64,000 bases of DNA, taken from assembly GCA_025057375.1 (NCBI GenBank), contig JANWWO010000001.1:1-64000 (forward strand). The letters are read 5' to 3'. A program made the translations under genes and the position numbers. The DNA is from Candidatus Absconditabacterales bacterium (GTDB lineage: Bacteria; Patescibacteriota; Gracilibacteria; Absconditabacterales; Absconditicoccaceae). Positions 28,466 through 60,432 of the stretch are shown in pieces. The notes beneath the pieces are model-generated. The model saw only the letters and a list, made by a program, of their open reading frames with translations. It was not told the origin of the DNA and ran no database searches. Position 1 is the first letter of the stretch, and each line of letters begins with the position of its first letter.

Positions 28466-28576
28466 ACGTAAAAAGCAGTAAGGTAAAAAATATCCATGAT
28501 ATTCGAGATAAGTATAGTGAGACATCAAAAAAAAGCAAATTTTTTGGTACAAAACAAGAACAAATATTGACAAAAT

Positions 28577-31795: not shown

Positions 31796-31803
31796 CAACA
31801 GAT

Positions 31804-31825
31804 GGGACTGTGTCCCTTTTTTTTT
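31804..31825 (+). terminator. Rho-independent terminator
   Basis: GGGAC-TGT-GTCCC followed by nine T, 8 bp after the stop of the secreted protein. Confidence 0.8.
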
Positions 31826-31839
31826 ATAGGAGAAAAGAG

Positions 31840-32823: not shown

Positions 32824-32856
32824 ATGCCCCAAAAGATAAAATACTTAATAAAAAAT

Positions 32857-32885
32857 TTGACAAGAAAATTATTTTAAGGTATAAT
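32857..32885 (+). promoter_or_regulatory. Consensus sigma-70 promoter of the M23 peptidase gene
   Basis: TTGACA (32857-32862), exactly 17 nt, TATAAT (32880-32885). Both hexamers are perfect consensus. Transcription should start near 32892, leaving a leader of about 30 nt before the ATG at 32923. Confidence 0.85.
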
Positions 32886-32922
32886 CAAAATATGAATATA
32901 CAACTCTTTTATTTTTATTGAT

Positions 32923-34269
32923 ATGATGCAAACTTGCAAGCCCAAATTACAAAAAAACATCTTTATCGCTGACTATGGTAAATGGTGGTCTCACGATACG
33001 TCTCGTAACATTCTTGGCTATACATCAATGATAGTTCTTAGCTTGTTTGGGATTATTGGACGATATTCCACAGCGAATACAAATACTCCAAACAATACAA
33101 ATCTTGAATATCCACTTCGTCAAGTATCTAAATTGGAATGTAGAACAACACATTGGAATGATCATAGCACTGATTGTAAGATATGACTCCCCCGTATTGC
33201 AGGAGCCAATTTCGATGCAGTAAAAAACAATAAAACAGTAAGAGACATCTATTCTGTCTTATATAAAGATGCCTATACCAAAACATGGCAATTTGTAGGA
33301 TCTCACATGGGAATTGATTTTTCAACTGCAAGAGGAACTCCAACCTATGCAATTGCAGATGGAATTGTCGACTTTGCTGGAACCCAAGGATGATATGGGA
33401 ATGTCATCAAAATAAGATTTAGATACAATAGTAAAGAATATCTTGCTGTATATGCCCATCTTGATACCATCGAAGTCAAGCAAGGAGACTCAGTAAAAAA
33501 ATGACAGAGAATCGGAACAGTAGGGAATACAGGAGTAGCATGAGGACAAATGGGCTGATTTCATCTCCACTTCGAAATAAATATCCCTGACCCAAAATCA
33601 AAAAGATTTGTCTATGGATTCTGGGAATGTCCAGAATGGAACATGGGGAAAAATGAATTTCAAGTCGTAGAACAATGACACTGTAGATCATTTATGGATC
33701 AAAGAACTCTTGACCCAATCGCCTTTCTTGAACAAGCATGAGCAGCCATCGTCGCACCATCACCATGATGACAAGACACAGTTGTCCAACAACCAACACC
33801 ATCTCAACCCACCCAGGCAGTAGCAAAATGACCAGCAACTATTCGTATTACTGAACCTCAAGGAATAAATGTTTCTACAACAGCAAGAGAACTAATAAAT
33901 ACACATACACTCGCCATCGATGCCCCCATTAACAATCTTGCTATCAACGAAGAAGGAAATATCTCTCTCAAACTTATTAACAAAACAACCAATAAAGCAA
34001 TGGTATGACTATTGACAGACGCATTAGAAATTGTTTCATCCGATCGTTCTCTTACTATTAATCCTACCTCTATTTCTCTCCTTTCTGATCCAGCTATTGT
34101 ACGTATCAAAGCATCCACTGCTGGCGAAAAAACAGTAACAGTAAGAATCAATTGACAAACACGATGAACAATCACATTCACCATCTGATGAGGAACGCAT
34201 GCAAGTGCGCAACCAACAAGATTTGTCTGCCTTTATAAAGCAGCTGATAGAATGAAATACTTTTTCTAA
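32923..34269 (+). CDS. M23 family metallopeptidase
   Basis: 448 residues. An N-terminal membrane segment (about residues 30-48, YTSMIVLSLFGIIGRY) anchors it outside. The peptidase domain has the zinc ligands of M23: H128 and D131 in SHMGIDF, H179 in VYAHLD, and H214-x-H216 in GFHLHFEI. GDSVKKGQRIGTVGNTG is the usual inner motif. It should cut cross-bridges in peptidoglycan. The C-terminal 150 residues (after a Pro/Gln/Ser linker) form a beta-rich domain (IRITEPQGINVSTTA...AGEKTVTVRING) that resembles an Ig-like or wall-binding fold. ATG 32923 was used; an earlier ATG at 32892 is out of frame. Transcribed from the consensus promoter and closed by a terminator. Confidence 0.92.
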
Positions 34270-34295
34270 ATATCACTAAATACAAAGAATAAAAA

Positions 34296-34330
34296 AACCA
34301 TCACTGACTATTCCGTGGTGGTTTTGCTTG
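34296..34330 (+). terminator. Rho-independent terminator of the M23 gene
   Basis: AACCATCAC pairs with GTGGTGGTT (nine pairs, one G-U) around a 10-nt loop, followed by TT. Confidence 0.75.
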
Positions 34331-34399
34331 TAATTTTTAAAAAAAAAACTACTCTCAAAAACAATATAACCATCATTTTATTTCTCTCTTACTCATTCT

Positions 34400-34933
34400 A
34401 TGATAACGATCATAGCAGCTATTGCGGCCAATGGGGTAATTGGAAACCATAATCGTTTACCATGGCCTCACCTGCCTTGAGATATGAAACATTTTCAGTC
34501 ATGTATTACCGATCAACGTATTGTCATGTGATCAAAGACTGCCCAATCATTTCGCAATCATCCCAAATTACAAAAAAACCAGATAGCTCAACGATGATGA
34601 CATCCATCAGCCAAACATAGCATTATTATGTCTCAGACACAAAAACCATCAATCAATCAATGTATTAAGACAAAAAAAATTGTTGAAACAAGCAATCAAA
34701 CAATAGAAGAAATAATTCAATCATACCCACATGACAATCTCTGGATTATATGATGAGCAAAAATCTATGAAGCACGACTCTCTTATGCAAACAGAATGAT
34801 CATTACCCACATAGACAAAGACTACGAATGAGATAGCTTCTTTCCCAATTGGAATCAACACGACTGGATTCTCATACAAGAGAAAGCATGAGAAGACGAA
34901 GGAACAAAAATTTGTTTCTATCAAAAAAAATAG
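34400..34933 (+). CDS. folA: Dihydrofolate reductase
   Basis: 177 residues. ITIIAAIAANGVIGNHNRLPWPHLPGDMKHF matches the standard N-terminus (ANGVIGxxNxLPWxLPxDxxxF). VMGSKT (Gly coded by UGA) and LWIIGGAKIYE are the NADPH-binding motifs, and ITHIDKDYEGDSFFP is also typical. It reduces dihydrofolate to tetrahydrofolate. No thymidylate synthase is adjacent. glyA elsewhere in this window supplies the one-carbon unit. Confidence 0.95.
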
Positions 34934-34935
34934 AA

Positions 34936-36405
34936 TTAACCTATCCGCTTTCATTCATCTTTTCGGCATGGATCAAAGACTGTACTCAAACTTATAAAGG
35001 CATGAAAAACATGTTTCTCACATGAAAACCAGGAAATGGCAAAATATATCTTCTCAATCAATCCACCAATCGAGTCAAAGAAGATTAAAATCCTCTTGCT
35101 CTAATAGCGTCCACAGGTATTGTGCATCCAGGCACATCTAACGATACAATACACGATCGATCATGATTAGATATCAAAGAAAAAATTACCGATGACGATC
35201 TTAATGATTTGATAACGAAACCATCGCTTATTCAAAACATCACAAAAGCAAAAGTTTTTATCATCAATCAATATCAATACTAAGTTTGACAAATTTTGAC
35301 AATATAGACAATATGTACTAGTCTATCAAAAAAGATAAAAAAGATGTTAGATCGTTGCACATGATTCTAGTCGATGTTTTTCACCTACCTTCTGTCTTTG
35401 ATGTCATCCTGTCTCTGATGTCATATTACCCCGATTACTAAACATCCTCACTGTGCATGCGAAACTCATGCATGATGATCTGGCAATTTTACTATTTGCT
35501 ATCTAAACCAACAACAAAAAAAATGATCCACCATTTCACCATACTCAACGAAATACGATTACGTATTGTTTCTTCTACTACAACTAAAATGTTCAATCAT
35601 ATAACACCAAAAATCATACCAAATAACTGCACCAATCCTTTTACTCATAATACCAATGTTGATTATCTCAATACTCAAGATCTCGATGCGATTGATGAAC
35701 CAATACAATCATTTACTGCCACACCTGAAAGAGAGAAATTTGCCTACAACATAATACTCAAAAGAATTATCAATCAGACTTCTATCCTTCTCAAAGTCTG
35801 AGAGAGAAATATGTATATCAAAAATAATCACACCGCATGACATAACAATAGCATCACAGAAATAGAAATCTCGTTTGATCACGATACAAACAATGCCACC
35901 ATCCAACAAGACAATGAGATAACAAATAAAATTGAACAAAGGTATGAACGAGAGAAAATTATAATGATCTCATAGGACTCGTGAGTCATATTACACTCAA
36001 ACTGACACAAACAATCACTATACATAATATCAAAGGAATAAGAATTGATACGGCCTGCTGTGATTTGACCAATCTCTTGAATTAAAATTAAAATATAACA
36101 AACATATGTTCCCCTTTCCCGTCTCAAAAGTTCTTGACGGTCTCTATCTTTTAGAACAAAACCACTCATCGATCAAAGCACACTCCACTATTTTCGAATA
36201 TAACAAACTTTTTTTGAAACAATCATGAGAAAATACAGCAAAACTATTGCTTCTTAATGACAAAAGTAGACAAATATTGACAGACACATATCTAAAAATA
36301 CTGAAAATCGATCTGAAAAACCACACAGCATCAAAACTTGTCTTCTGACTATTATGAAAAAACGAAAACAAAAACTTATGTTATGTCCCAAAAAAATATT
36401 TCTAA
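34936..36405 (+). pseudogene. Decayed Pif1-type helicase
   Basis: Pieces of a Pif1/RecD-like helicase appear in order but in changing frames. The N-terminal part reads GMKNMFLTGKPGNGKIYLLNQ (Walker A, with the final Ser/Thr replaced by Ile) and ALIASTGIVHPGTSNDTIH. The last of these lies behind an in-frame TAA at 35086. A third piece reads LSKPTTKKMIHHFTILNEIRLRIVSS, then VDYLNTQDLDAI and LLKVGERNMYIKNNHTAG. The end reads LKLTQTITIHNIKGIRIDTA (Pif1's LxxAxAITIHKSQG) and TYVPLSRLK, and a further shift leads into VLDGLYLLEQN. At least one TAA, one TAG (35973) and one frameshift interrupt it; TAA and TAG remain stops in code 25. The Walker B DE is also gone (VFIINQYQY). It lies between folA and the HIT gene. 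Confidence 0.8.
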
Positions 36406-36470
36406 CGAAATTAATAGCTTGATTGAATTAAAATAAAACGCACTGTCAACACAAACATTAAGCAATGATC

Positions 36471-36498
36471 TTGTATTTTGGGAAAAAAAACGTATTAT
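36471..36498 (+). promoter_or_regulatory. Sigma-70-like promoter of the HIT gene
   Basis: TTGTAT (36471-36476), 16 nt, TATTAT (36493-36498), 40 bp before the ATG at 36539. A TATAAT also lies at 36510. Confidence 0.4.
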
Positions 36499-36538
36499 GA
36501 AGTCCTGAGTATAATTTGTTTTATCATAATTCATCCAC

Positions 36539-36970
36539 ATGATCATTTCCAGAGAAGAATATGAAAAAATCAAATGAAACAAAAGCATGTTTGGGAAAGA
36601 TGACTGTCCTTTTTGCACCACAGATCTAAGTAATGTTACCCTTCGAAAAGGAAAATATCGAGCCATTATCATTAATATTTGATCTTACACCGGTACATCA
36701 GAACACATCATGGCAATTCCCAAAGCACACAAGATATTAATGACCGATTTGGATACAAACGAAATTATGGAACTTCCCCTTGTATTTCAAGCCGTCAAAC
36801 ACATTATGAATGAGAAAGAATATTTTTCTTTTACAAGAGAAACCGTACACAATTCTGGAAGAAGTGTAGAACATCTTCACATTCACTATTGTCCAGGACA
36901 ATTACAAGGAGAATACCTTCGTCATATGCTTATGAAGCAATGATTCCCTATTGTTCAACATCTGAACTAA
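36539..36970 (+). CDS. HIT family nucleotide-binding protein
   Basis: 143 residues. CPFC near residue 24 and the histidine-triad motif VEHLHIHYCPG fit the HIT fold. IIINIGSYTGTSEHIMAIPKAHK is the usual strand-and-loop before the triad. HIT proteins cleave phosphoramidates or phosphoanhydrides of nucleosides such as AMP-lysine or Ap4A. A weak promoter lies upstream. It stands directly after the decayed helicase. Confidence 0.88.
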
Positions 36971-37005
36971 TTATTCTTTTTATCTTTCTTATCATTAATA
37001 AAATA

Positions 37006-38997
37006 ATGAAAGAAACCCTTCTGACGTTACTTCTTGTTCTCATTATCGATGTTGTATGAGCTCAAAATGTCATTATGAGAGATGATTTTGTACTTGATTT
37101 AGATAGTGGAGCTATCATCCCAAGAGCAGAGTGGGATGCAAAACAATCATCAAGTTGAACAAATATCATAACACAAACAGGAACTACACAACCAACTACG
37201 ACACAAAATACAGCAACAACCCAAAGCATAGAAATCACACACGCTCAAACAACGGGATTAATACAATCATGAAATAATTCTATCACTAGAACTGTCCAAA
37301 CTAGCGAAACAATACAGACCATCCAAAGCACAAACCAAACAGGAACCACACAGTCAACAACTGGATTGATACAATCATCACAATCTCTACAAACAACCAT
37401 ACCAAACATGCAAACGGGAACAAGACCTCTCTTTACTCCTGATCCCAATCGTAGCGAACTAGACAATGCAATCGCATGGATGTACAGCAATGATCTGACC
37501 AAATTTCCAACCAAAGAATCATTTATGCCAGACAATATCATCACCAGAGAACAAATGGCAAAAATGATTTCTCAAGCATATACTGTATTATGATATCCAG
37601 AAAAAAGAGGGAGTAATCCATGTCAATTTGGAGATTTTGACACAGCAGACCCAACGCTACAGCCATTTATTACGCAAAGCTGCCAAAGAGATATCATTGG
37701 GTGATGGTGAGGAAATTTTCATCCTTTTGTCACCTTAACAAGAGCGCAAGCAATCGCGATGATTATAAGAATATTTGAAGGACAAAAATCCGATGAGTCA
37801 TGAGACCCTCGATATCGTAATTATATCGTTAAAGCACAAGCAATGTGACTTACCACACAAGATCACACTGCAAATTTTGATGTCCCTATACCTAGATGAG
37901 ATGTGGCAATTCTTCTCTATCGTTTCAAACAAGCATCAGAAAACACCCTCGCAAGAGATGCCTTAGTTCAAAGACTCAGAACAATTTCTGTACCTGGCAA
38001 CCAAAAAATCGATGCACTGCGTCTGTCTGATAATATTGGACTCCTCACACAAAACGTTGGAATCGGGAATGATCCAGAATTGAGAGAGGCAACATTTCGA
38101 ATGTTCCAACAATGACTCACGACCTATGCACAAGCGGAAGAATTTAGAGCATTTGATCAACTCCAAAGACAAGAGGCAGCAAGGTTTCTCGGTCAATTTC
38201 ATCAACAATTTTTATTGTCATGATGATTGGATACTGTACCAAACTCCCCACAGTGTAGATTTTCTGATCTTGCTGCTGCGAGAGAAGAATTGAGATCGTT
38301 TATTATCTATTCTTGTAATGTGTGAATTTTGAGAGGACAACAATGATTTTTTTCACCAACTCATTCAATGACCAAAGCAGAATTTCTTGCTGCCATGATT
38401 CGTATGCTTGGAGACGCCTTCCCAGAACCAACAATAAGAGCATGACAAGTATGGCGAGAACCATACTTTGAAATATGATTGCAGCTATGACTTGTGAATC
38501 CTATGGATAGGGTAGCATTTGTGAGAAACTACCCAATCACAAGATATGAAGTTGCTGTCATCTTGTATAGATTTCGTATCAAATATAGAATGCTAACCAA
38601 TCTAAATGCAGGCATACTCGAAAATCAACTCCTTGCTCTTGTCGATGAAAATCCCATCACTGTTAATGGTCGTAGAGAAGCCAAAGTCTATATCACGACG
38701 ACCAAACTCGCTGACCAAAATTTTACGGTCTGATTTATTGATCTCATGGACAAAAGATATAAAATCACAAGAGAAAAAGTGGATAGATTTTTTCATAATA
38801 ATTTTGTCTGGTATGGTACAATTATCGACCTAGATACTGACCAACCAATTGGAACAGCAAGTTTTGTGGTCTCCAATAATATCGTCGTCGAAGGAAATAT
38901 AAGACCTCATGGAAATCAAGCAACCTATTATATGATCCGTAGAGCAGAAGGAACGAATGCGTTCTACCTCATGACCGAGTTTACTGACAATCAATAG
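37006..38997 (+). CDS. SLH (S-layer homology) domain protein
   Basis: 663 residues with a signal peptide (MKETLLTLLLVLIIDVVGAQ). After a Thr/Gln-rich linker (residues 40-140) come at least five SLH-like blocks. Examples are ELDNAIAWMYSNDL...NIITREQMAKMISQAY, CQRDIIGW...TLTRAQAIAMIIRIFEG, KAQAMGLTT...PIPRGDVAILLYRFKQ, SCNVGILRG...SMTKAEFLAAMIRMLG, and LQLGLVNP...PITRYEVAVILYRF. SLH domains bind peptidoglycan-linked polymers, so the protein should be held at the cell wall. The C-terminal part has no known domain. It precedes the amidase gene by 55 bp on the same strand. Confidence 0.88.
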
Positions 38998-39052
38998 TCA
39001 TCTGGAGCACGATACAGGTCAGATTCTCTTTTTATCTTTATCGTTATGACCA

Positions 39053-41047
39053 ATGGTTCGTTATCTTGTTGGAATCATCACCATTTTTTTGTGGTCATAT
39101 ACTTTTGCATCAACCATCAATCAAACGTGGGATCTTCCATGAATCACGCTCATAACTCGTGCAGAATGGTGAGCCGATGAACGTTCAAGACTCAGATCAC
39201 ATGCCATTTTTCAAGGTATTATTCGTGCATATGAAGAACGTGAACGTCAACATGCACTCCTAAGACAGACCAATTTTGATGCATGGCTACAAGAAGAGCA
39301 AAAACGTCATGAAGCAAGAAAACGCGAAGATGATAGAAATGCATGGTTACTTCAAAGCTTTAGTGAAAAATTTTCTATCAACAATCGTATTAACAATATC
39401 TTCTGAGAGCCTCTCCGATGGCCCCAAACCTACCATTTCAATAAAACAGAAATCATCATTCATCATACAGCTTGAGAAGTTCCCACAGACCAATCAATTA
39501 CAGATGAAATAGCAGAAATCCAAAGAATTTATCGCTTTCATACACATTCTCGCGCACGATGAGATATTGGATATAACTTTATTATCGGACCAAGTGGAAG
39601 AATTTATGAAGGAAGAGCATGAGGACCAGGTGTCATTTGAGCTCATGCACAATATAATAACACAACAAGTATCGGCATATCGTTGATGGGAAATTTTGAG
39701 GTTCAATCTGTTCCTCAAGCACAATATGATGCATTAGTTCAACTAACGACAGCCCTTGCTCGTTACTACAATATCAATCCCAACGATCAAACAACATATT
39801 TCAAAGCAATAAATAATGCCCCTTTTATCCAACAAAATCGCCATTTTCGTATTGCATGACATCGTGATGCGTGATGGACATCATGCCCAGGGAAATTTTT
39901 GTACGAAAAACTTCCTACACTAAGATCACAAGTTTTAGCAAATCTGGCGGGCCTAGGAGAACCAAGCTGATCAACACATCCCTTACAATGAACGATCAAC
40001 CCACTGACCCTATCGCTCAAACAAAAAAGAGAATTACTCCAAAAAACTGTTCGCCATGTCACACAACAACAGCCACTGACACCGTCAACAGCTCAAATCC
40101 AAAGAAACTCAACAGCACCGCTCATTACATCCCTCCCTGATCTCATAAAAAAACCAGTCTCCGTTCTCCTTCTGGAAGCAAGTACCAGTCTTAATAATAC
40201 ACGGAATATTTCCTGTTCTTCATGCACACTCACGATTAATCAATCCACACTCCCCGCGCCTCGTTCATTCACCATCAGATATAATCCTCAACGTCAACGT
40301 TTTCTCATTAGTCAATGATCAAGACAAAGAGAAATATCATCGCTGACGATTACGACAAATACACAAAAAGAACGCATCATTATAAGTAACTATGGGAGAA
40401 CATCATTCCAATGAATTCCGCGACATTCCTTTTGGGGCTCAATGACTTTTACTATAGGACAACTCCCATCAAACCAACCATCTGGTCAACAGCCTCTCGT
40501 CATCAATACTCTAGATCTTGATCGTTATCTCCTTGGTATTGTAGAAGCAAATGATCAACATGGCTTTGAGTACAATAAGATTATGGCAATCCTAGCCAGA
40601 TCTTATATGCTATATTATCTTGATGATCGCAATCGTCATCCATCCATCCCGGCTAATGCTCCTTACAACGCCATCGATGATCCTGATTATTTCCAGAAAT
40701 TTGTTTGAGCCGGTGTTGTTGATACACTAAAACTTCGACCAAGAGCAGTAGCAGATACCCAATATACAATCATGCACATCAACAATCGTATTGTTCTTTT
40801 CCCCTACTTCTCGTGCACCCCATGATTTACACTGCCCGCATCGTTCAAATGGTGATGGACCGATGCACCGTATCTCAAAATGGTTCTTGATCCAGCACCA
40901 TGTAACGAATTTGTCTGACATGGAGTGTGACTATCATGACAAGGAGCTCGTGCATTATTGAGAATGGGAGTAAACTATCGTGATGTCCTCAGATACTTTT
41001 ATCATGGTGTCCAATTTACTACAACAAATCTCGCAATGAGTCAATAA
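39053..41047 (+). CDS. N-acetylmuramoyl-L-alanine amidase fused to SpoIID/LytB domain
   Basis: 664 residues. A signal peptide (residues 1-21) is followed by a helical, charged region. An Amidase_2/PGRP domain (about residues 130-290) then shows the zinc ligands IIIHHTAG, and GHRDAGWTSCPGK with the final His and Cys, plus GYNFIIGPSGRIYEGR. A SpoIID/LytB domain follows (about residues 480-660): LDRYLLGIVEANDQHGFEYNKIMAILARSY and HGVGLSGQGARALLRMG. Fusing a peptide-stem amidase to SpoIID-type glycan processing gives one protein that can open the wall at two bonds. It is exported. The neighbouring M23, SLH and VanW genes support a wall-remodelling role. Confidence 0.9.
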
Positions 41048-41082
41048 TCCTGACTCGTTTTTGTATTGTCCCCCAAACAGTC

Positions 41083-41835
41083 ATGTTTATCCAATGCAAC
41101 TCACACGGTCGCAGAGCCCATCTCTTTTTACCAAAAACTGAAACAATTACCTGAGTCGTCCTCCATGCACCAGATATGCTTTGATATCCCAAATCATCAG
41201 AACTATACTCATTCTACCATGATCAATGATATGCCGTCCTCAGACCTATGCGATCTGGATCAGGAGAAAGCGAGGGTGTCTTCTCGACTCAGCAATGTTT
41301 CACCGACCTACGCGACCGATATAACTATATCCAACAGTGAAATTACAAAACCCTTATCAATCCTGATGGAAGCTTTGAAACAATCACACTCCCACCCACC
41401 GAAACCATCCTCATAGGAACAAGTTTTGGTGAATGGATAGTAGGACTCATGGCATATCATTCACACTTTTCTGCAATCTTAACTATCCATATCCTCTCCC
41501 CCATGCGATCACCGCACAGATACACGAACAACAAGCCACGAATCCAGCAAGCCCATATCCATCGCCACATTCTCACCCACGCCTTCCCCCGCTCACGAAC
41601 AGTCGATCCAAGTTTTTGGGATGAAATACTTGGAAATGTCATCTATGAACCAGAACCACACATATGACAAAAAAAATCACTGACCGTCATTCATGGTCGT
41701 GATGATGACGTGTGTCCACTCTCAATGGGCGAACGATGTGCTCGTGATCTAAATGCTCGTTTAGTAGTGGTGAATGGCTGACATACGAGCAACATGGATA
41801 GAAAGCAGGTTTATGAGGCATTGAGCATAAAATAA
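41083..41835 (+). CDS. Alpha/beta hydrolase
   Basis: 250 residues. The nucleophile elbow is GTSFGE, the acid is in VIHGRDDDVCP, and the base is in GGHTSNMD, a full Ser-Asp-His set. HDQGYAVLRPMRSGSGES (UGA Gly) matches the strand before the oxyanion hole. Substrate unknown; an esterase or thioesterase is possible. The sequence upstream of ATG 41083 is in frame back to a stop only a few codons earlier. Confidence 0.8.
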
Positions 41836-45511: not shown

Positions 45512-48500
45512 ATGCGTTCGACGATCACATTATGGATCAATGCTCAATTCTCTCGTATCACCAGACCTCAAATCTGGGCACTAATCGTTGCGTACTTCCT
45601 TTCCCTCATGCTACAATTTTTTTATCCTATTTATTCCCAACGTGGAAAACAAGAAGGACAGATACCACAAACATCAATTATTGCCGTCATTATCGAACAA
45701 GAACTCTATAATCGTCTTCGTAGACAAGTTGATCGATATACATCCTCCTATATCCAAAGTCGTCTGCCCCATACACGTGCTCTCATCCTTCCTATGGCAT
45801 CATCAGTAATGTCTCGAGAAATCCTTGGTATCATCGAAAATCTCTGGACAGAAAATACCCAAAACACATCATCTCGTCTTGATGGAATCGTCCTGATTGG
45901 TGATATCCCCCTCCCCGTTGTAAATGATAACTGATACATCTTTCCAACTGTCTATCCATACACTGATCTTCTCAAACCAGCATATATCTGGGATAAAAAT
46001 ACACAATTCTTTGAAAAAAATGAACTAACTGACCACACTCCCGAACTATGGCATGGTCGTATCTGATTTGCCAATGACGAAGAGTATGTACGTTATTTTC
46101 GCAAATTGAGACATCATCAAGAAACACCATACCAATGGACTGATCATAGATTCTGGTATGATAATTTTATCCAACTCAAAGAAACGTTTTCTACTCCCTC
46201 ATTTCTGGGGTATATCAATTCCCTCTTCCTCGCAGAAGATATCGCCTATCATAGATTCTCTAATCTCATGATCACTATGCTCATGGGAAGCGTCGAATCA
46301 CAAGTCGATCAAATGTTTTGAAAAGCCCAGGAAAATGCACAAAGAAACAGTGACCGTGTCAGTGCAGAATGATGAGTATTTTGAGAAATTGATGGAGGAG
46401 AACAAGAACAACTATGAGCATTTTGGAAGTTTTTGCAAAGAATTTTGGGAGAAAGAAAAAAAGCACAAACAGAGGCTGCACAAATTGTTGCACAAACACA
46501 AGGAAATAACCCACAATCTGCCTCTTCAGCTGATCAACAAACCAAATCACCCACACTCTTTCTTCCCAAAGCCGTCCAAGAGCTTACCAAAGCATATAAT
46601 GCTGTTGTTTGAGAATGATACCAAACAGCACCACTTGCTGATGTCAGAGCAATGGGGTATCGAACAGGATTTGATTCCCATCGACAAAAAATAATTCATC
46701 AAGATAGTCTCGTTACCAAATCAGCACTCCAAAAGAATCCTCCCCTCCTCACCATGTACAATACAATCCTCGAAAACAGTGTTCTCAGCTATGTCAATGA
46801 CCAAAAGTTTGCTATGAAAATACCAGTCAATCAAAGTTATAGAACAATTAGACACCAAAATATGAATGAAAGAATCTGAATCTGTCCTCTCTGTATCCCA
46901 AGAAACCGATGTGAAAAAACAGAAGACGATCTCTATGAAACGCATTTCTTTGGAACCAAAACTGATGCTCTAACAGGCATAGAATCAATGAGTATCTATC
47001 GTGGACAATTTGTGAACATAACAGGACGAAATACTGCCCAAACCTTTGCTTATGCAACACACCAAAAAAATCTTGCCTGACCAAGTTTGACGACCGATCC
47101 AGCACAGTGAAGTGTTTGAAGAAGTTTGAGTATTTTTTCTACCCAAACACAATCACAAAGGTGATTCAATTATGACCTCGCAGCTCGTGATGCAAAGCAG
47201 TGGGATGAAGAAAGACAATTTACCGCAACAAGAATTTTTTGTGACGACTATTTTTCTATCCTCGGGATTAAAATTTTTTGTAAAAAAAGAGGACGAGAAT
47301 TTATCGAAGAAACCCAAAAAAAAAGAAGAAGAAATAGACAAGCTGATAATCAAGATGGTGACAACAAAGAGTCTCCTGATGAGTTTGCCCAGAGAATTCG
47401 ATGATGATTCTCGCTCATCAATCTCAAATCATGAACAATGCAGATGCAAAATCTCATTCCACAAAATGCACTCTCCCCCCTCCGAGATAGCAAAGGAACA
47501 AGAGCCATTGAGACTGCAAAAACAGGTGCAGACTCGTTTCTCTCCCAACAATATTTTTTGTGAGCAATCCAGAAAACAGATCGTTTCTGAGACTTGACCT
47601 ATAACAAAACATTGATTTTTGATGATATCAAAAAACTAGGAAGAGATACAAAAGGTGAAAATATTGCAAGAGACTATGAAGAACAATATCTCAAACCAAA
47701 TATCAGCATCCTCGCTCCCTACCTCGAAGATTATCTTGCTCCATGACAACCTTATTATACACGCCAGGGCAACAAGATCTTCTTCCCCTTCTCAATAAAA
47801 AACTTTCTCCCACGAGGGTCAGTCGATTTCTTTTCTATTTTTGATGGACAAGTCTATCACAATGACGGTGGAGACAAAAGGCATGTCCCTTTTAGACCTA
47901 CAGAGAGAAGAAATATCTTTGTCAATGACCAAATTGTGCAAAGAAAATGATGAGCACCTGCTGTAGGCAAATGTCTTCTAGAAGGAATCAAACGACAGCA
48001 TGAAACTACCTATCGCTATAAGCTCCTAGACTCTCGTCAATACAATCTTGCTCCTACACCGTCACTTCTCGACCAATTCAGCGTCACAACAGATGATAGA
48101 CCAATAGATAGTATAAGAAATCTCACGTTTCAAGGCATTTGATGAGATATGATTCGTCTCACGATGCCAAACGTCTATGCAATCCCTGTATACAAAAAAG
48201 AAGGCAACTGACTCGTTTTGATGACACGCGAAGAAATCGAACAAAGCATCAGATCAACCCTCATCAACCAAGTCAAAGCATATAATGAACTCCTTGCCTG
48301 ACAACAGGCAAAAGCACCTACATTTTTTTCACAACACAGTCAAGCGTTTACTGAACTTGGAAGAATTGATCCACTTGCAAAACCAAGCCTTGATAATCGT
48401 CCCTATCAACTCTTTCCCGAAACATATCTTATCGACCAACTCAATAGCATCATATGATCATGAGATGTATCCAATACTGATCCTATCAAGACACTTGCTG

Positions 48501-51500
48501 CTATTCTCTATCATCATAACGCACTACGACCTACCAAAATGCAAACAGCAACTATCGAACAAGAACTCGACGCACTCTGGTCACAAAACTTTCTCCCTCA
48601 CAAAATCAAAACAAATCTTGCATACTATCTAACGCAAGATATGACCAACCCAGACAATCCCGACGCAATCCCTGCTCGTGGACTTCCCTGATATCATTCA
48701 GGTGGCTATGAAGCAGCATTTTTAGTAAGTGATGGACTGCTTCGTTTTCCCCAAGTTAAAGAACCACCTCTAATCACGAGAATCCAAAGACAACTTCGTC
48801 TCCCACAACCTTCTATCCCTACCATGACAGCAACCGATCGAGAAGACGAACAACCAAGCTGTGGTAGCCTTGATGAAGCATATGATCTTTTTATCCTAAG
48901 AAAAAGAAGACCATGAGAAATGGATTGGTTCCAAGCCTTCCGTTGTTGGTTAGAAGAAATAAAAAAAAATCCACTCAAGCTCGAATTTAGTTATCAAGAT
49001 GCAGAGGGACCGGTTATTCCTATTTTTGGGAACAATCTACAATCATGGTTTGATAAGTTTAGTCAAATGTATGTCTTTGACGAAACAAACAAAGCAAGCG
49101 AACAATGGAAAAGATACAGTGACCAACGAAGAATTATGATTTTGAGCAATAGACGTGATAGATATATGACTAATCGTCGTCGTCTCGAAGAAGCTAGACA
49201 AAAACAACAAGCATGATCACCACGTCATACCACACAAACAGAGCAAATCAATGACTTGACCACCAAGATCAATCGTATCGAAGAAGAACTTGCACTCCTT
49301 GGTGTAGGGAAAAAAAATCCTGCAACTGACTCACGTCTCACACGTCTTGAACAAAGCGTTTCTGTCTCCATTCAAGGACCAGGCTGACAATGGCTTGTAG
49401 GCAAACCTTTCGGATTCGCAGATCAAGCATATATTCAAATTCAGTCACAATGATCACAAACAGGTGAATTTGAAATACGTATTGCTTCATCAGGAGATAA
49501 CTGTCTGGTAATTGATGGAAATAATTCTTGCACCCGTCCTGTATCTATCGGTCGTTTCCCGCTCCAAGCAGCCAATGTTATTCTTGACAACCAATTACGT
49601 CTTGCAACAAATAAAGCATGATTGATGGGAATTTTTGTGGATATTTGTCTTCCTGGAACAACGCAATGTATCACAACAACCAAACCCATGACGATTGTCC
49701 CTACCGAAGTTGCACGTATCGAATTTCGTTTCCCTCTCCCTTATATAATTGCTGGTGTCACAACGCCTTTTGTGCTAAAGGCATTTGATCCCTATGATAA
49801 TCCCGTCAACCAAACACTGACACAGTGGACTATTCGTGTCAATGAAGGAGACATTGATGGGGTCGCTTTGAGAGAATTTAGGTCATTTGATGAAATTTTT
49901 TCGTATGCATTCGACCCAACCAAAGAACAGGAGGATAAACTTCTCAGTTTCATCGTCCAAGACCAAAATAATCCAAACAAAGCATTCCGTTTTCAAATCC
50001 CACTCTACTACCCTATCATCACAACAACATTCTCAGAAACAACCTACAAGCTTCCCGAATCAATGAATAGTGTCATAAGTGGATGAATGATTGTCCAAAC
50101 CTGATGACGACCCTCCGTTTCTCTTTCTGCTCGTTCCTCTCGCGGGCTTCCCATCCAAGTACCACTGTCACTCACCGCCTGACCTATCCTCAAAGTAGGT
50201 ACTATCATACCCAAATGATCCTGATCACAACTCAAACCTCAATCATCATTAATTCTCTCTGGAGATCAAACACTATATCTCTGGAGTGAATGAATGAAAA
50301 AACTTGATGAAAACCTCGTTATATCCTGGCCCAATAACCAATCACGTACTCAACGTATCATCTTTGAACCAGCATCAGCATATCGTCTTAGCTTTGATCG
50401 TGACACACAAGCAACAGATTTAGGACAATCCTATCATTTCAGTGGGACAGTTCGTGATAGATGGGATAATATCGTCACGACTCCTGTCACACTCACCCTA
50501 GGAACATTAGGCACAGCAAAACTCACACAATCTGACATATCAGACAATTCTGTATCCACCCTCCACCATGCAGCTGTCCCTGATCAATGACACACACAAC
50601 AAATCCAGTCAGTCAATGGATCTTTTTCTACGAAAGTAACAATGACCAACTTATGACCTGCCTATCTATATGCTCTCATACCCAACAAATCGCTCGATGA
50701 CCAAGTTCCTGCTCTTGTATCCCTTCTGTGATCTGCTGATGTTATCCCAAGAATGGGGCTCAATGTCATGTATCTTACCTTGGCAGGAAGCGATCGAGCA
50801 AATTGGCATAATCCTAACTCCACAACCTACAAAGCAACACAGACAATGCTTGCAACATCGTCCAAATTACTGACTATTACAAGCCAATTGACAGATCCAC
50901 GCAACATTCATCAAGCACAAATCCAAATCTTCGATGATGGAAGATATGTTGGTCCAGATCCAATACTAACAGCATGATCAAGCTGACTAATCATGACTAT
51001 TGGGACAAATCAATGGAGGCTCCCACCACTCGCTATAAATAATGAGAAAAATTCGGTCTGACGACAATTCGAACTCAATCCTAGTGATGATCGTCTCCGT
51101 TTGGAAATCACAAATAATGCGCTCCGTATCAATGGTACAGTAGCTTTTGATCCTAGTCAAAATATCATTGATCCACAACTCTCATTTTCGTTTGGAACAA
51201 AAAATCGCTTAGAATGGTTTGTTTCATTTAATAACACAAGAATTTGATCTGTCCGTTTAGTACCATGAACAATGGAACGATGACCACAATGGCAAAGAAC
51301 ACGAGGAGCATGATCAACCAATGTTATATGATGATGGATTCTTCCTGATACATCAACCACTTATCAACACGATTTTCACAACGGACTAGAAGCCATTGCA
51401 GAAAATCCAACACAAGGGAACGCATTCCGTATTGGAGGACAACATCTTTCATCATGGGCTGCAGGAAGCAATGTCTGAGAAGCAACCAAATTTGGGATGA

Positions 51501-54500
51501 CCCCCTTTATGATCAACGACGGAGATCCTACAACAACAAAACATACTAACACAACAAGGCTATTAACCCAACTTGATCAAGATAAACTTCCTCCGTCTAC
51601 ATCACAAGCCAAATCTAATGCAATACAAACAAATACGCAAACATGAAAAAGACAAACACCAACTCCTACCAAACCTATCCCTTTTGATCAAACAGCAGGA
51701 ACAATCTCCTGGAAAAACAGCGAATCTCCTATCATCACGACTCTCATCTGAGATATCAACAACGATGATATTCCTGACCAACTCATTGTGTATCGTAATG
51801 GAAGGGTCCAATGGCTCAAGCAATACAATAATTGACGGACAGATCTTGGTGACCTTATGTTTCTTGCTGACCAAGTCCAAAAAGCATGGCTTGGGGATAT
51901 CAATAGTGACTGATATGCTGATATTATCATCCATACCCAGAGCAATGATCTCAGAGCATACACGAATAAGCGTGGTATTTTTGATGTTGATGGATTTCCG
52001 ATCTGTCTTGATTTGCCTGGACATGAGATTTCTCGTAGACCACAAAATGTCGCCAATGCAAGACAGCTGGAAGTTCGTGATATGGACCTTGATGGCAACC
52101 TAGACATCATTGCACTTGATAGTGAAGGAAGTATAACTATTTGGTATGGAGGAGAAAGAGATGGACACCCAACATATCTTTCTTCCCAATCAACACAATG
52201 TGCTCCCTGACGACAAGAATACTTGATCAAAGAAAAACTCCCGATAACCCAATTTGCTACCGTCATTAACCCAACGCAAAAAGTAGTCGATGAAAGTTTG
52301 ATTCGTTGGACAGGGCTTAGTGAAGAAGAATGATTTGAGGAAGAAGTTAACATCGATCCATGAGCCTTTGAGAATACGTTCACTGATAATACACAGGATA
52401 TGGAAGTCTTTAATTATATCCCTAGACGTGAGGAATCCCTAGTATGGATAATGTATAACCACCCGAAACGATGAAGAATGTTCAGAAAACCGAATGCTTT
52501 AGAATTAACACAGTCTTCTCGTTTACTTCAAGCCTGATTATTAGCAGAATTGCCTTGACTAATGTATTTTTACAGAAGAGCAATAAAATTATTTAGAAAA
52601 TACCATGATCACAAAATTACTCCAGTGGAAAATACTGTTCCAAATCTCAGCAAATTTCCAACCAATGATCTCATCAACCAATCGATGACAACAACAAAAA
52701 GATTTGTACCTGACCCAAGCACGGACATCTATCCCATCGGCGAAACACTTGCTTTTGGAGATATCAGATATAGAGAAATATGATTTGGGTCAAATCAAGA
52801 TCCTGTCCTCGTACACAAAACATATACCGACCTCAATGGATGAGCAATCGCACGAGGCGATAATATTCGCATTACCGTCACAATCGAAGGGAAAACAACC
52901 AAACGTCTCACCTATATCAATCAAGATAAATGACCACGAGCTCCTGATCAATGATCAGGTGTCCAATGACGACATACAGGGAATCTGAATACTGATAGTC
53001 GTCTGATCAAACTTAGCAATCGCGATGATGACTATTCGTTTGTGATAGACAATATCAATATTGGTGATCAACCAGTAACCTTTTCATATACACGTACCTG
53101 GTGGGGCGATATACCCATTGCAAGTTTTACGCTACAAGATAGGAATCGTGACACCTATCCCGACATCGTCGTCTATCCCAAAGATGGTTGTCTTGGCTAT
53201 ATCAATGATTATCTCAATATTGAACAATCACTTCATGGCAAACCAAGAAGAGGCTATAAAAAAGTCCAGCGCGCTGTTGCTGATCCCAAAAATCAAGCAA
53301 TGACAGACCTCCAATCAAATCTTGATTCTTTCCTAGGCAAAACAACCGAAACAATTCAATCTATTATGCAAAGTGGCTCATTGGATATGTTGCCTTGACG
53401 AGATCATATCAAAGAACAGTTCTCACTCCAAACACTCTTTGATAATAATTTTTCGATCATTCAAGGATTTGATACCACTAGCATCGTCGATTCAGTTCTG
53501 TCCCGTGTATGAGTAGACACACAAGACGTAGAAAGAGCCATCCAAAGCGTTCTTGATGGCATGTGTCAATGATTCCGCCTTGGGTCAAAACAGGCAGCCT
53601 GTAAATGACCACCTATCCCATTCAATATGGCATTTCTCAGTCCCGGAAGATACCAAATCTTTGGATGTGCGCTCCCCACTATTATTCCCTGAGTGATAGG
53701 TAACGATAACGGGTTTCCTATTCTTGCGTTTCCTGCAACATTACCAACACCTGTCTGACCTATGCTAGCACCGTTTCCATGGGGAGGAATCCTCAAAATG
53801 CCAGGAATTGATCAGTATGGCTATTTTGGATTTCCTGCACCATCAGGTACGTATCCGTCGATGATTAGAATCTATCTCTCACCAACACTCACAATGGGAC
53901 TAGGGATTGCATTCTGCTTCTGACCACAAAGACCAATGAGCATGATCCCAAGTCCTCTCAGAGATATTGCAGGCAATTGTATCGTTTTTGCCATTCCCTT
54001 TTCCAATACCTGCGATCAATGAGGAGGAGATAACTGACTGCTTGATGAGATTGCACTTGATACCAATACGATTGATGCTTCAAAAGTCCAATGTACCAAT
54101 CAACCACGCCGTCCCAATCGTGTTCCTTTCCCATGAGCAAGGAGTGATGTTTCTTCTAGTCCGACAGTATTGATCGAGGATAAAGAAAAAACACTAGTCA
54201 GGATATTCGGTACTGACTATAGCTTCAAAGATCTGACCAAATGGAATGTTGCCAATGATACTATCTGATTTGATCAAGCTCCAATGGGTGATGGTGGTAT
54301 ATATGGTCCATTTGGTATTGGATTGGTCGAATTTGAGAGAAAACCACTTGCCAGAGCGCAAATCACCGACCCTCTTGCTACGACTCAAGATGTACTTCTT
54401 CGCCCTTGAATTGATATCAAAACAAGAATCGAAGGCTGAATGATGAAAGCAAAAGGCCTTTTTGCCTGTGTTCTCAATAACTGGCTTGATAGGCAAAGTC

Positions 54501-57500
54501 GCTATATCATCAATAATTTGACCAATATGACAATTGGTGTCTATCTTCCAGATATTACGACACTCTTCCAATGATTTGATCAGCTAACTCTCGACAAACT
54601 CAGAACATACCAAAAAGTCGCCAACAATACTCACACCTTTGATCTCAGACGTGAAATAAGTCAAGAATGATGATTTGTGGGCACAATTGACAGCAATGCT
54701 CGTCGTTTTCTCCCTCAAAAAGCTCATTTTGATCATCTTGCCTCATCAATCTCCAATCCTTTTGAGGCAATCCAAAGTCTTTTTTCTGCAGTCCCTCTCA
54801 TTGATGTAGCGACCAAAGATATTGTACTTCAGGTACCCATGCTCACCGCAGATGAAGTCACTAGATACTCATCCTACCTAGAATCCTGGTATAAAAGAAA
54901 TCTTGATATTCTCAACCAATGGAATAGTAAACTTGGTGAAGTATTTGGATTTTGTGGTTATGCATTCCCAGCACTCGAAAGAACACAATTCCCAACTGGC
55001 ATAAAGCCATCGGCATCAGACAATAAAGAAAGTTACAAAAAACTCAAAAAGAGAGCTGCTATCTCTGCTCATGTCTCTGCTCATGCAACCGAAGGACAAA
55101 TTATTTTACTTAATGCAAAAACTCGCATCCAGCTCACCGAACAAGGTGGTAGAGCAAATGCTGGACGCGTCGATAATCTCATTACTCAAGCCAAAAAACA
55201 AGCAACCAAAATCATCAACCAATACCAAAAAGATGAAGAACTCCTGACCGCTATGACAGGACAACTTTCGCAATTGATGAAAATTCTTTGACAACTTGAG
55301 CTTCTTGCCCAACGTTTTGCATGAAATGAAGAAGGAATAACCACACAACTCAGACAAATTTCTGATCAAATGGCAGATCTTGATCAAACTATCCAAACCA
55401 AAACAGCAGAAAAAAGAATACTTCAAAATCAACAGCGTATTACATCCACTCCCTCACAAACTCAACAAACCAGACGAACAGAAAAAATCACACAACTAAC
55501 CAATGAAATTAATAATGCTCAAGCAAAATATGACCAACTCGCACAACAAAGACAAATATTGAGACAAGACCTTGAACTGGATACAATGCTTGCACAACTA
55601 GACGAGAGTATAGCCCTCTTTGAAGGACTAAGAGAAACAGGCACGATGCCACCACAGTGTTTGGATCTTGTGTTTGGATGAGGATTTGGAAAAGAACTTG
55701 GTGCAATACTCAAAGCAGCTCTCGAAGCAGCAGTCATAGGATGATTTGCAGCAGTTTTCAGTCTTCCTCCAATAGAAGGCCTAGATAGTATCCTCGAAAT
55801 GCTTTCCAATGCAGAACTTGCCGTGACAAGAGTCAGAGAAAATATTTTGGTTCTCCAACAATACAAAAAATTCCCGCTTGAACTCGCAAAATGGCTCAAT
55901 ATCACCGATCGTTATCTCAGCGAAGTTGCCGGGATTATCCAAACATTTTTGGGCACCATTGCTCAATGGATGATGAAAAACAGTAGGAGATTTTCGCTCT
56001 GGGTGGATGCCATCGTCATTCTTATCCTCACACTTAAAACACGACAAGTCATTATTAATGTCAGTGTCAATCGACAAAAACAATGCAGCACCTGTTCAAA
56101 TGACAACTATACCTTTTATGGATGTGGATTTTGATTTATCTGTAATTTTATCAATCTCCCCATTTTACCGATCCCACCTCTCAGAATACCAAGCATTTAT
56201 ATCGACCTGTCTCATATTGATGCAAACATTATGGTGATGCTTCCCACCTTCCGTCTCGCTCCAGTAATGCTCTCCCTGCCACAACTTCCAGATCTTCCTC
56301 GTCTTCCACCAGTACTGGCTGGTATCGACATCAATGGAGTCAAAGATCTTGTACTTCTCGCACTTGAACAATTTCTCCAAACAATTGGATTCACTCTTTG
56401 AGCACAATTTGCACAAGATCTCCAACAACTCATCAATGATGCTCTGAGACTTGGGTGAGTTATCAATGAAAATGGAGAACTTGCACTCGACTTTGGTAGT
56501 TTAGGGGGCGTACTTGCTCAATGACTAGAATTTCTCAGAGATATTGACTTGACAAACATTCCTGTCATTCCTGCACCTCCCGTGCTTCCTCCACTCCCCT
56601 CCTTTATCCCATCTGTCACACTCAAACTTCCTGACCTTCCTCCTGCACCCAAAATCCCAAGACTTATTCCCCAGATTGATCTGATTCTTGATATTCTTGA
56701 TTTGGTTGGGAAAATCTATTGCATCATCAAAGGATGAGGAATTTGATTAGTTGCAGAAAAATGAGTCAAATCAAAAATTGAACAAATGACACAAAGAACA
56801 CGGCCAGTCCCTTTCTTTGATTATATGGATCTAACCCGTATCTCATTTTTTCAAGGTGACGTACTCAGAGGATTTGATTACCGTATTGATGCCTATACGC
56901 AATTCAAATTCAACTTTTCGTATATTTATGATATTGTATCATTCTTTGCTGATTATGTCAATGAATTTACCAATGAGCAAATTATGAAACCAGTTAATCA
57001 AACAATTGATTCGTTTTCACAAACGCTCAATAAGCAAGCTCAACAAATCACGGAACCACTCAATCGCAACCTGCAAATAAACATCGTTCCCGAACATATC
57101 ATGAACCAACTCAACCAACAGCAACAACAAAATCAAAATCAAACGGAAACAACACCACAGCCCTCAAGCAATAAATCACCACAGCAGTCTATACCCACGC
57201 CACAGCCAAATGCTCCCCAGTGATTCCTTCACAACCAGTGACTTTCTCCAGCACATCGTGAGACACTTGCATCAACACTGTATGGTGACAGACGAATCGC
57301 AGATAATATGGATATCCCTGATGCACAGAACTTCCTTCGTCGTGGACTTACCACACTTCTCAATCACCACCAAGTCAGAGGCAAGGTCCGTGATACCGTC
57401 AGCACCCTTCTTTCTCTTGCAACCAAAAACTGGTGAGCACAAGGGAATTTCACCGGACTCGCAACAATGGAAACACTCATGAATGACGTCATCAATCAAC

Positions 57501-60154
57501 ACAAAAAAATCGTCACTGACTTGCGTGAACGTGTAGAACATGACTATGACGGACTGATTGAGGAATTGAGAATCAATAACGAACTTGTATTGGTTGCTGA
57601 TACACCACATCTCAAGTCTCAACTTTCAATCCCACTGTGGACAGTCGATGACCAATTTCATAGCCTCACCACATCAATGCGTCATCCCACTCGTGAATTT
57701 GTGGATATACATAAACGTGTTATAGACATCATGCAAGAACCAATCAAAGCAATGAACAATACACCAAGCTTTGATCCCGTTCTCGCACAGGAAATCAACG
57801 AAGAAATGGCTTTTGTATCCTCAGGTATCCAAACAATCAAAAATATTTTTGACTGACAGGCAACACAAGCTGATCGAGATTTTCTCGCACAGATAGACGA
57901 ACCACGCAAATCCAGACCATGAGACCAACCAGCATTATGTAGAATAGACAATGAAGAGTGGGATTGGTTGAGACAAGAGGCAGGATCTGATTCATTCGAT
58001 CGTTCGCAATCTCTCCGTGTGGAAAAATCAGAAATCCCAATCAATGGTTCGCTCCCAAGCAATACTGATATACCAATGTCTCATGAAACATGACACATCC
58101 AAAATACATGAAATCCCCCAGCATCACTACAACAAATCCACTCACATACCAATCCACTCAACACCACGAATCATAGACTTCTTGCCCAAAACATCAATCC
58201 ATCATCAATTGCAACCAATATTGTATCCAATCCTTTGATAACAAATTATATGGACAATGTTGATCTTGCAACATATGTCCAAGGCATCTGGTATCGTGAT
58301 CGTGACCAAGCTACCAATGTCGTCTCATCCATAGACCAAATCAATGCCATCAAAGACAACTATTCCTTTGTCCATCTTGATGAACCAATTTCTCAAGGTA
58401 TTGATTATGCACGTCAAGATCTTCTGATGCACGATGATAAAAGGATATGGCACAAAAAAGCATTAGACGTGACAACACGCAAACCATTCTCAAACACTCG
58501 TCCACAGGATTTCTTTCGTGGTGAGAGATTTGCGATTAATGAAACTGCATGATCACAAGGAAATGCAACACGCTATCGATGGCAAAAAACGCAAAAAAAT
58601 GACTGACACGTTCGTGTATGAGGAGAGAATCTCCGTATTGCATCGAGACACTATATGGTCAAGAATTTTAGGACAATTGGACAACGTTTTGATGAAATTA
58701 CTGTCTGATTTACTGCAAGTACCAAACAAAATGATAATGTTGCAGGCTATCTCATCAGAACAACCAGAAGAGCAGATATTTTTGATACCAAAAAGCAAGT
58801 TTACTCATTCTTTGATCGTCAACGACGTGATCAAACAACACCTATTCAATATGTCCTTATGCTTCCCCTTGAAACGCAACGAGAAAACGGTCGTGTAATT
58901 GTTCCTAATGAACTCAACGTTCGTATTCCAGACGCAATGACAGGAACTATTATCAAAGTCGAATATTTTGATCCAGAGTCTCCAGATCTTACAACATCAC
59001 TCACCAATATGGAAAGAACACGATACTATATGCAAATTGCGTCCCTCATCAACGAAGGAACAGATGAAAAACCCATCTATATCAAAGCATCCAACTGGTC
59101 AAATCAAATTGTCGCTGGACAGCAGATTCTTGCTGATAAAGAACCCCCTATTCCTCAAGTCGTCCTCCATAGAGTAAAAACCAATACTGATATCATGGAA
59201 TGATTCAACCTGGAAGGAACCATCAATACCCACTACCAGATCCGCATCAAACGAGACGATCAATCGGGAATTCTAGAAAACCGAGTTATCGCCACTGGAG
59301 ACCAAAGACAACGATCTGGATCACTCCAAGGTGACACTTTTATTATTGATAGTCCAAGGTTATTTTGGGATGAAGAAATAACAAGAAATTTCCAGATAGG
59401 CGCACTCGATACCCAAGGCAATGTGTGAATAGCAAGCATTAAACTTGAGCTCACTGTTCCCACGATTGATATCGACGATGTATCCGCTACCTGAATGCAA
59501 TCTCGTATTGTCTCCATAATCAGCACCGATATGGATGAAGGAAGTGTCCAATACCAAAGAAAGCGTCGCAATACACGAGAAGTGATGCAAGGAACCAACG
59601 CCCTCCCAAATACACCTTCCCTCTTCCCCCTCACCACACTCCAAACCATCAATACCGGTCAGTGGTTTTCTCTTTCCGACGCAATAGAGTTTTTTGACTC
59701 CCAAGAAAATATCATTGCCAGAATGGATAGCACATATGGAAAAATTGATCTGACTAGTTCGGGTGTCTTCCTTGATCTTGATCTCAGCAGACGTATTCCC
59801 GTCCTCGTAATGAAAAAGCAAGAAACACAACAAGCAATCTTTGATATTTATCTTCAACCCAAAACTATCATAAACGAACCACGTGCAAACAATCCTCGTG
59901 TCTCTATTACCACAATCAACGAACCCAAACTTGCATCATTCCATAATGGTCGATGTGTCAAGATCAATTCCCAACGTTGCGACTTTTTTGTCGCTCCCAG
60001 TGGTCTTATCTATGCTGCTGACAATGCCAATATGCTATTTGAGGGAAGATATAACTTTGACGAGACAAACAACGCAGTTGTCTATACCATCACCAACCGT
60101 GCATGACAAGACCAATTTACAGTGAGTTTTGTGATTGAGGGTATTTTGCAATAA
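45512..60154 (+). CDS. Giant multidomain surface protein (4,880 residues)
   Basis: One open frame of 14,643 bp to TAA 60152; scanning the frame found no earlier TAA or TAG. A membrane helix lies near residues 22-42. Residues 125-210 (RLDGIVLIGDIPLPVV, YPYTDLLKPAY, ELWHGRIGF) look like the C25/gingipain-type protease fold, but I do not see its GHG...C catalytic pair. Long charged and Gln-rich coiled stretches follow. Calcium-binding FG-GAP/VCBS-type repeats appear at residues about 2075-2200 (GDINNDDIPD, GDINSDGYADI, DMDLDGNLDI) and once more near 2545 (DRNRDTYPDI). A hydrophobic, helix-rich zone with a membrane-like segment (WVDAIVILILTL) is near 3500, a Pro-rich segment near 3685-3720, and Gln/Asn-rich tracts near 3865-3905. 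The C-terminus is beta-rich. Expected role: surface attachment or interaction with a host. Function inferred from architecture only. Confidence 0.9.
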
Positions 60155-60432
60155 AATCGTATCAATGAATGCAGTCATTTGTTTTGTGATATAAGACGGA
60201 TAGTTCCAACGGTGCCAATATACCCACAAATAAAAAAAAGACCAAAAATGCAACACATGATGCGATCTGCATCTGCCTTATCACCTAAGAGATTTCTCTC
60301 AAAGGATGAGCATTCAAACGTCAGAGACAGGTTGTTTTTTTGCTGATCGTAGATCATTTCTACGATCTTGGGTGGCGAAGAATACTCCGCACATCCCATA
60401 AGGAAAAGGAATAAAATCAAAATTCTCATCAT
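60082..60432 (-). CDS. Small lipoprotein
   Basis: 116 residues if UGA at 60175 is read through to the TAG at 60082. The N-terminus MMRILILFLFLMGCAEYSSPP is a lipoprotein signal peptide with the lipobox LMGC. A second hydrophobic segment (CCIFGLFFICGYIGTVGTI) lies near residues 60-78. It overlaps the end of the giant gene by 73 bp, which weakens confidence in the last part. A 9-bp inverted repeat (60345-60367) lies inside the coding region. Confidence 0.55.

What the first reader, a model, noticed from the sequence alone, without database searches (positions are those of the whole stretch)
45512..60154. 4,880-residue multidomain protein
A frame of 14.6 kb without TAA or TAG, starting with a membrane helix and a C25/gingipain-like domain that seems to lack its catalytic His-Cys, then coiled-coil, FG-GAP/VCBS-type calcium repeats, a hydrophobic zone and beta-rich ends. 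The domain order does not match any surface protein family I know, and it takes nearly a quarter of the window.
Basis: partly seen in the sequence, partly recalled or inferred. Interest (0 to 1): 0.65.

Follow-up and report, generated by a model that had tools for sequence, protein, structure and literature searches.

The report
Class-wide giant secreted surface protein
The 4,880-residue protein is real and is the local version of a very large secreted protein that one class of tiny host-dependent bacteria has kept, in one piece and usually as a single copy, probably to build the surface that touches the host cell.

Summary
Confirmed. With code 25 (TGA=Gly), window 45512-60154(+) is one open frame of 4,880 codons, 111 of them TGA. 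Homologues are unbroken frames of 3,630-5,270 aa (one 7,874) in dozens of independent assemblies, some single-contig, and in relatives where TGA is still stop. TGA codons fall on Gly columns of those standard-code homologues 5.6 times more often than background. Both end domains occur in nearly all families sampled of its class (Absconditabacteria/SR1, BD1-5, Peregrinibacteria), are absent from families f5/f8, and were found in 0 of 343 genomes from other classes of the phylum. The gene tree follows genera.

The 'membrane helix' is probably a Sec signal peptide. The C25/caspase-like fold is only weakly supported, but a catalytic His-Cys pair is absent family-wide. The calcium repeats are three FG-GAP loops. 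Two of the most conserved regions, a Cys/Pro/Gly domain and a 'proline comb', match nothing in Pfam or by PDB sequence profile.

A secreted Cys protein (B), and often a VirB2-like pilin (C), are encoded just downstream in relatives; here both are kept but unlinked. Best reading: a Sec-secreted host-contact surface protein. Function is inferred, not shown.

The parts
45512..60154 (+). Giant gene (A): 4,880-aa secreted multidomain protein, table 25
45512..45640 (+). aa 1-43: positively charged start plus hydrophobic stretch (aa 21-39); probable Sec signal peptide, cleavage not certain in this copy
   Evidence: Hydropathy; relatives carry AxA-type cleavage motifs
45665..46297 (+). aa 52-262: conserved alpha/beta domain, C25/caspase-like (clan CD-like) fold, no conserved catalytic His-Cys pair
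   Evidence: Pfam C25 E=0.037; AF2 model well predicted here, Foldseek top hits caspases at E=0.14-0.3; alignment A10; His/Cys columns
46661..47611 (+). aa 384-700: conserved block of predicted helices and long beta-hairpins, partly conserved Cys 467/577/590
48002..49036 (+). aa 831-1175: conserved block with near-invariant Cys1117 and Cys1145
49439..51556 (+). aa 1310-2015: beta-rich region, at least one bacterial Ig-like (Big_1/S-layer-like) module near aa 1620-1715
   Evidence: Profile vs PDB: S-layer protein 4uid E=0.009, attaching/effacing protein 4e9l E=0.027; Pfam Big_1 E=0.01 in one of 10 members
51752..52105 (+). aa 2081-2198: three FG-GAP calcium-binding loops (2081-2089, 2129-2137, 2190-2198)
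   Evidence: FG-GAP_3 in 10 of 10 members, best 8e-11; invariant Asp columns; PDB profile hits secreted esterase 2e-11, integrin alpha-IIb 0.009
53558..54031 (+). aa 2683-2840: Cys/Pro/Gly domain (PFN-x-AFL-x-PG ... RxYxxPTLT ... GNC), no match in Pfam or PDB profile search
   Evidence: Alignment A1; PDB profile best E=0.73; class-specific
54965..55780 (+). aa 3152-3423: helical/coiled-coil-rich stretch mostly absent from relatives
   Evidence: Insertion analysis; AF2 helices
55781..57091 (+). aa 3424-3860: most conserved core with a 'proline comb' (LP-x-LP repeats, CxxC, Cys3737), alternating predicted helices and strands
   Evidence: Alignment A11: 32 invariant columns across standard-code and code-25 lineages; no PDB match
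58109..60151 (+). aa 4200-4880: beta-rich C-terminal region; no LPXTG, SLH or C-terminal membrane anchor
   Evidence: Alignment A9; C-termini; Pfam

Best explanation
The gene encodes one giant Sec-secreted envelope protein that is an ancestral, vertically inherited component of its bacterial class. Most likely it is a long, disulphide- and Ca2+-stabilised surface structure that reaches from the cell envelope to the host or prey cell. An inactive caspase/C25-like domain and Ig-like modules would form the membrane-near and stalk parts, the FG-GAP loops a calcium-stabilised beta module, the Cys/Pro domain and proline comb the conserved core, and the beta-rich C-terminus an outer part. It would work with a small secreted Cys protein (B) and probably a VirB2-like pilin (C). 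Shown here: single gene, conservation, secretion signal in relatives, no conserved catalytic dyad, partner genes. Inferred: surface location, shape, host contact, physical binding of B and C.
For: Giant frame in 34 of 36 genomes of the family by sequence match and in most other families of the class. Every multi-member genus and the one multi-member outgroup family is monophyletic in the gene tree, support 0.996-1.0. Signal-peptide-like N-termini, no other anchor. Family-wide Cys columns and Asp calcium loops typical of extracytoplasmic proteins. Gene B, also with a signal peptide, sits within about 120 nt downstream in 19 genomes, is single-copy in 34 of 36 family genomes, and persists where unlinked, as in the window's genome at G000:C15. 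Gene C, which passes the Pfam T4SS_pilin cut-off in the example tested (6.3e-7), follows in 13 genomes and is kept unlinked at G000:C2 here. Literature: the longest proteins of Vampirococcus lugosii (1,392-4,163 aa) are inferred to be membrane-located and responsible for its fibrous surface (PMC8080830); large proteins of Strigamonas carry integrin and fibronectin domains (PMC13059738).
Against: No experiment shows location or function. Host-contact roles in the cited papers are themselves inferences. Conservation of the core over such divergence is more like a structural or machine part than a fast-evolving receptor-binding adhesin. Families f5 and f8 of the same class lack it, so it is not needed by every member. 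Fold predictions were poor (mean pLDDT 52 and 62).
Confidence: 0.5

Rival explanations
1. A structural envelope component (a wall- or S-layer-associated scaffold) rather than a host-binding protein.
For: Strong conservation of core domains over the class; Ig-like match to an S-layer protein; the window's neighbours include peptidoglycan-active and SLH genes; no recognisable binding domain at the C-terminus.
Against: No SLH domain or wall anchor in the protein itself; absent from f5 and f8 of the same class and from all other Patescibacteria sampled, which also have envelopes.
Confidence: 0.25
2. Part of a secretion or conjugation-like machine (type IV secretion related) that delivers or takes up material at the host contact, with C as its pilin.
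For: Gene C is a VirB2/TrbC-like pilin in the same gene row in 13 genomes; the genome has a VirB4/TraG-like ATPase; a Patescibacteria T4SS with VirB2-like pilins is described (PMC12102498).
Against: The ATPase match lies on another contig (C16), not near A, B or C in this genome; only the pilin-like gene is linked; no T4SS domain in A; C is elsewhere in many genomes.
Confidence: 0.15
3. An active giant peptidase of the C25 type.
For: Weak Pfam C25 match at aa 108-209 and caspase-like Foldseek neighbours.
Against: No His-Cys pair conserved in aa 40-700: the only near-invariant His is H181 in an E-x-W-H-G motif, and no Cys column exceeds 24 of 34; the C25 match covers only the first half of the profile.
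Confidence: 0.03
4. Artefact: two or more genes joined by misassembly or by reading TGA through.
For: Only the choice of code 25 keeps it open.
Against: Standard-code relatives have the same giant as one frame; TGA sites match Gly; many independent assemblies agree.
Confidence: 0.01

Closest known systems
Giant surface proteins of Absconditabacteria (Vampirococcus lugosii, Strigamonas methylophilicida), PMC8080830 and PMC13059738
   Same: Same lineage, very large, secreted or membrane-targeted, integrin-like (FG-GAP) domains, no known enzyme
   Different: Those papers list large proteins by size and domain; the passages read describe no orthologous family, gene row or class-wide distribution. 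Whether the 4,163-aa Vampirococcus protein is this orthologue could not be checked (supplementary tables not available).
Integrin-alpha type FG-GAP proteins
   Same: Three calcium-binding FG-GAP loops
   Different: Only three loops recognised; the rest of the 4,880 aa is unrelated
Clan CD peptidases (C25/gingipain, caspases)
   Same: Probable alpha/beta fold of aa 52-262
   Different: No conserved catalytic His-Cys pair; fold similarity not significant
Large Cys-rich extracellular proteins of Peribacteria (PMC4736985)
   Same: Related class-level lineage, large, extracellular, two annotated FG-GAP
   Different: Described as about 1,655 aa on average with 7.2% Cys; the window protein has 33 Cys in 4,880 residues

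Membership tests
Peptidase family C25 / clan CD | Catalytic His-Cys dyad | tested here: not met
   No conserved His-Cys pair across 34 members
Peptidase family C25 / clan CD | Caspase-haemoglobinase fold | tested here: inconclusive
   Pfam E=0.037, below cut-off; Foldseek caspases E at least 0.14
FG-GAP (integrin-type) repeat proteins | D-x-D/N-x-D-x-x-x-D calcium loops | tested here: met
   Three loops, invariant Asp; FG-GAP_3 in 10 of 10 members
FG-GAP (integrin-type) repeat proteins | Complete seven-bladed propeller | not tested
   That region was not folded; only three loops recognised by sequence
RTX/type I-secreted giant adhesins | RTX repeats and secretion without an N-terminal signal peptide | tested here: not met
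   No RTX family in Pfam; N-terminal signal-peptide-like segment
Sortase-anchored adhesins | C-terminal LPXTG, hydrophobic tail, charged end | tested here: not met
   C-termini of 34 members and hydropathy
SLH-type S-layer proteins | SLH domains | tested here: not met
   None in 10 members
Giant surface proteins of Patescibacteria | Very large, exported, adhesion-type domains | tested here: met
   Length, signal peptide in relatives, FG-GAP, Ig-like
Giant surface proteins of Patescibacteria | Located on the cell surface and used in host attachment | not testable with these tools
   Needs microscopy or proteomics

The most novel reading that the evidence does not exclude
The giant protein with secreted partner B and pilin-like C is a previously undescribed, class-specific host-contact apparatus of Absconditabacteria, BD1-5 and Peregrinibacteria. 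It is built around two new domain types (Cys/Pro/Gly domain and proline comb) and was inherited since the origin of the class.
Probability: 0.25. Interest if true: 0.75.

Novelty: new variant of a known kind. Interest (0 to 1): 0.52.

Why it matters
How these minute, host-dependent bacteria hold on to and exploit other cells is an open question. A gene of about 14 kb kept intact in roughly 1-Mb genomes across a whole class, and usually single-copy, must be worth its cost. It gives a concrete, testable candidate, with partner genes, for the conserved part of the host-contact surface, and a clean marker of the class. Orthologues exist on both sides of the TGA recoding, so the giant spans it.

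Tried and rejected
Whole-protein search of genome contigs found nothing; a domain alignment then gave 32 loci. No relatives in viral contigs. PDB profile searches for the Cys/Pro domain, aa 2660-3858 and aa 40-1185 gave only weak or coiled-coil/helix-type matches; matches of the C-terminal region to antibody heavy chains are weak fold-level noise. The fold model of aa 2660-3858 was low confidence and matched nothing. Gene 1 downstream in standard-code relatives versus B: marginal profile match over 67 columns (E=1.6e-4, probability 50%), so common descent is suggested, not shown. The shorter open-frame lengths in the search tables proved to be limits of the query or contig ends where checked.

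Full report
Observation. With table 25 the window holds one frame, 45512-60154 on the + strand, 4,880 codons with 111 TGA. With table 11 nothing longer than about 204 aa survives there. A TAG lies three codons upstream of the ATG and there is no other start between.

It is one real gene. Searching relatives with the first 2,963 residues and with the last 2,017 gave matches in 49 and 48 of 59 genomes; in the window's own family, 34 of 36. I fetched 40 stretches. Where a fetched homologue lies inside one contig it is one frame of 3,630-5,038 aa, and one of 7,874 aa; further members of 3,762-5,270 aa appear in a phylum-wide sample. Several genomes are single contigs. In eight aligned relatives of other families TGA is a stop and the giant is still one frame. 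The window's TGA codons align with Gly there in 117 of 434 cells (27%), against 4.8% at non-Gly positions and 37% at GGN positions. Thirty-four full-length proteins align from end to end.

Distribution. Profiles of the proline comb and of the N-terminal domain each hit only genomes of the same class: 21 and 20 of 380 phylum genomes, all from the 37 class members in the sample, none of the 343 others. Within the class, family f5 (15 genomes) and f8 lack it in that sample; in the single-sequence search, single genomes of f10 and f13 also gave no match. Named records among the hits are SR1/Absconditabacteria, Gracilibacteria, Peregrinibacteria and one labelled Peribacteria. In a tree of 2,983 columns all five multi-member genera and the one multi-member outgroup family are monophyletic, support 0.996-1.0: vertical inheritance.

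Anatomy. The hydrophobic stretch at aa 21-39 is followed in most relatives by a signal-peptidase-like A-x-A or V-x-A motif (21 of 34 by a strict pattern; others fit by eye), and no member shows a C-terminal anchor. Pfam C25 matches weakly and only in the window protein. The AlphaFold model (mean pLDDT 62 overall, good in this domain) has caspases as its top structural neighbours, but at E of 0.14 or worse. The only near-invariant His between 40 and 700 is H181, and no Cys column exceeds 24 of 34, so no peptidase dyad. Residues 1310-2015 are beta-rich with an Ig-like module (S-layer protein 4uid E=0.009). Residues 2081-2198 carry three FG-GAP loops, present in 10 of 10 scanned members. Residues 2683-2840 and 3424-3860 are the most distinctive: near-invariant Cys, Pro and Gly, and a comb of LP-x-LP motifs conserved across standard-code and code-25 lineages. 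They match nothing useful in Pfam or the PDB. The fold model covering aa 2660-3858 was poor (pLDDT 52.5) and gave no PDB match, so no fold claim is made. Insertions at about 3152-3423 and elsewhere explain why the window copy is longer than most.

Context. In 19 relatives the next gene downstream, within about 120 nt or overlapping, encodes a secreted protein of roughly 265-340 aa with an invariant CC pair (B), and in 13 a small two-helix protein (C) follows that passes the Pfam cut-off for T4SS_pilin in one of two examples tested. B is single-copy in 34 of 36 family genomes and C-like genes occur in 35 of 36. In the window's genome the pair is gone from behind the giant (a DUF4012 gene on the other strand lies there), but B is on contig C15 and C on contig C2. 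In G003 and G021 B and C stay together on another contig. Retention despite broken linkage suggests a functional set. In standard-code relatives the next gene often overlaps by 4-8 nt and encodes another small secreted Cys protein; its relation to B is marginal. A VirB4/TraG-type ATPase exists on C16, unlinked.

Function. The most likely role is a secreted, calcium- and disulphide-stabilised surface structure for contact with the host cell, with B and perhaps C as partners. Secretion signals in relatives, conservation, absence of a catalytic dyad and the gene set are shown; surface position, shape and host contact are inferred. A structural envelope scaffold (0.25) and a part of a secretion machine (0.15) remain open.

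Comparison. The literature found here reports giant surface proteins in Vampirococcus (1,392-4,163 aa) and Strigamonas and large Cys-rich extracellular proteins in Peribacteria. None of the passages read describes this orthologous family, its class-wide distribution or its partners; supplementary tables could not be checked. I therefore call it a new variant of a known kind: the kind is giant patescibacterial surface proteins; what appears new is the conserved orthologue, its two unmatched domains and the gene set.

Noticed in passing
window 18080-28573 (-): A second giant frame, 3,497 aa with 149 TGA, made of DUF11-type repeats (Pfam E=6.7e-91, 11 stretches): another large surface-type protein in the same window.
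   Followed up: partly
window 30212-41835: A stretch rich in envelope genes: M23 peptidase (32923-34269), SLH protein (36679-38997), Amidase_2 plus SpoIID protein (38909-41047).
   Followed up: no
window 60082-60432 (-): A small frame with a lipoprotein-like start (LFLMGC) that overlaps the 3' end of the giant gene by 73 nt on the opposite strand.
   Followed up: no
G037:C6 (L042/L043): The same family reaches 7,874 aa in one standard-code relative, nearly twice the usual length.
   Followed up: no
families f5 and f8 of the same class: These lack both end domains of the giant, while f8 genomes still have VirB2-like genes: a natural comparison for lifestyle.
   Followed up: no
L023, L055 (G021, G003) and G000: The B-C pair has moved away from the giant gene in some genera, and in the window's genome all three are on different contigs.
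   Followed up: partly
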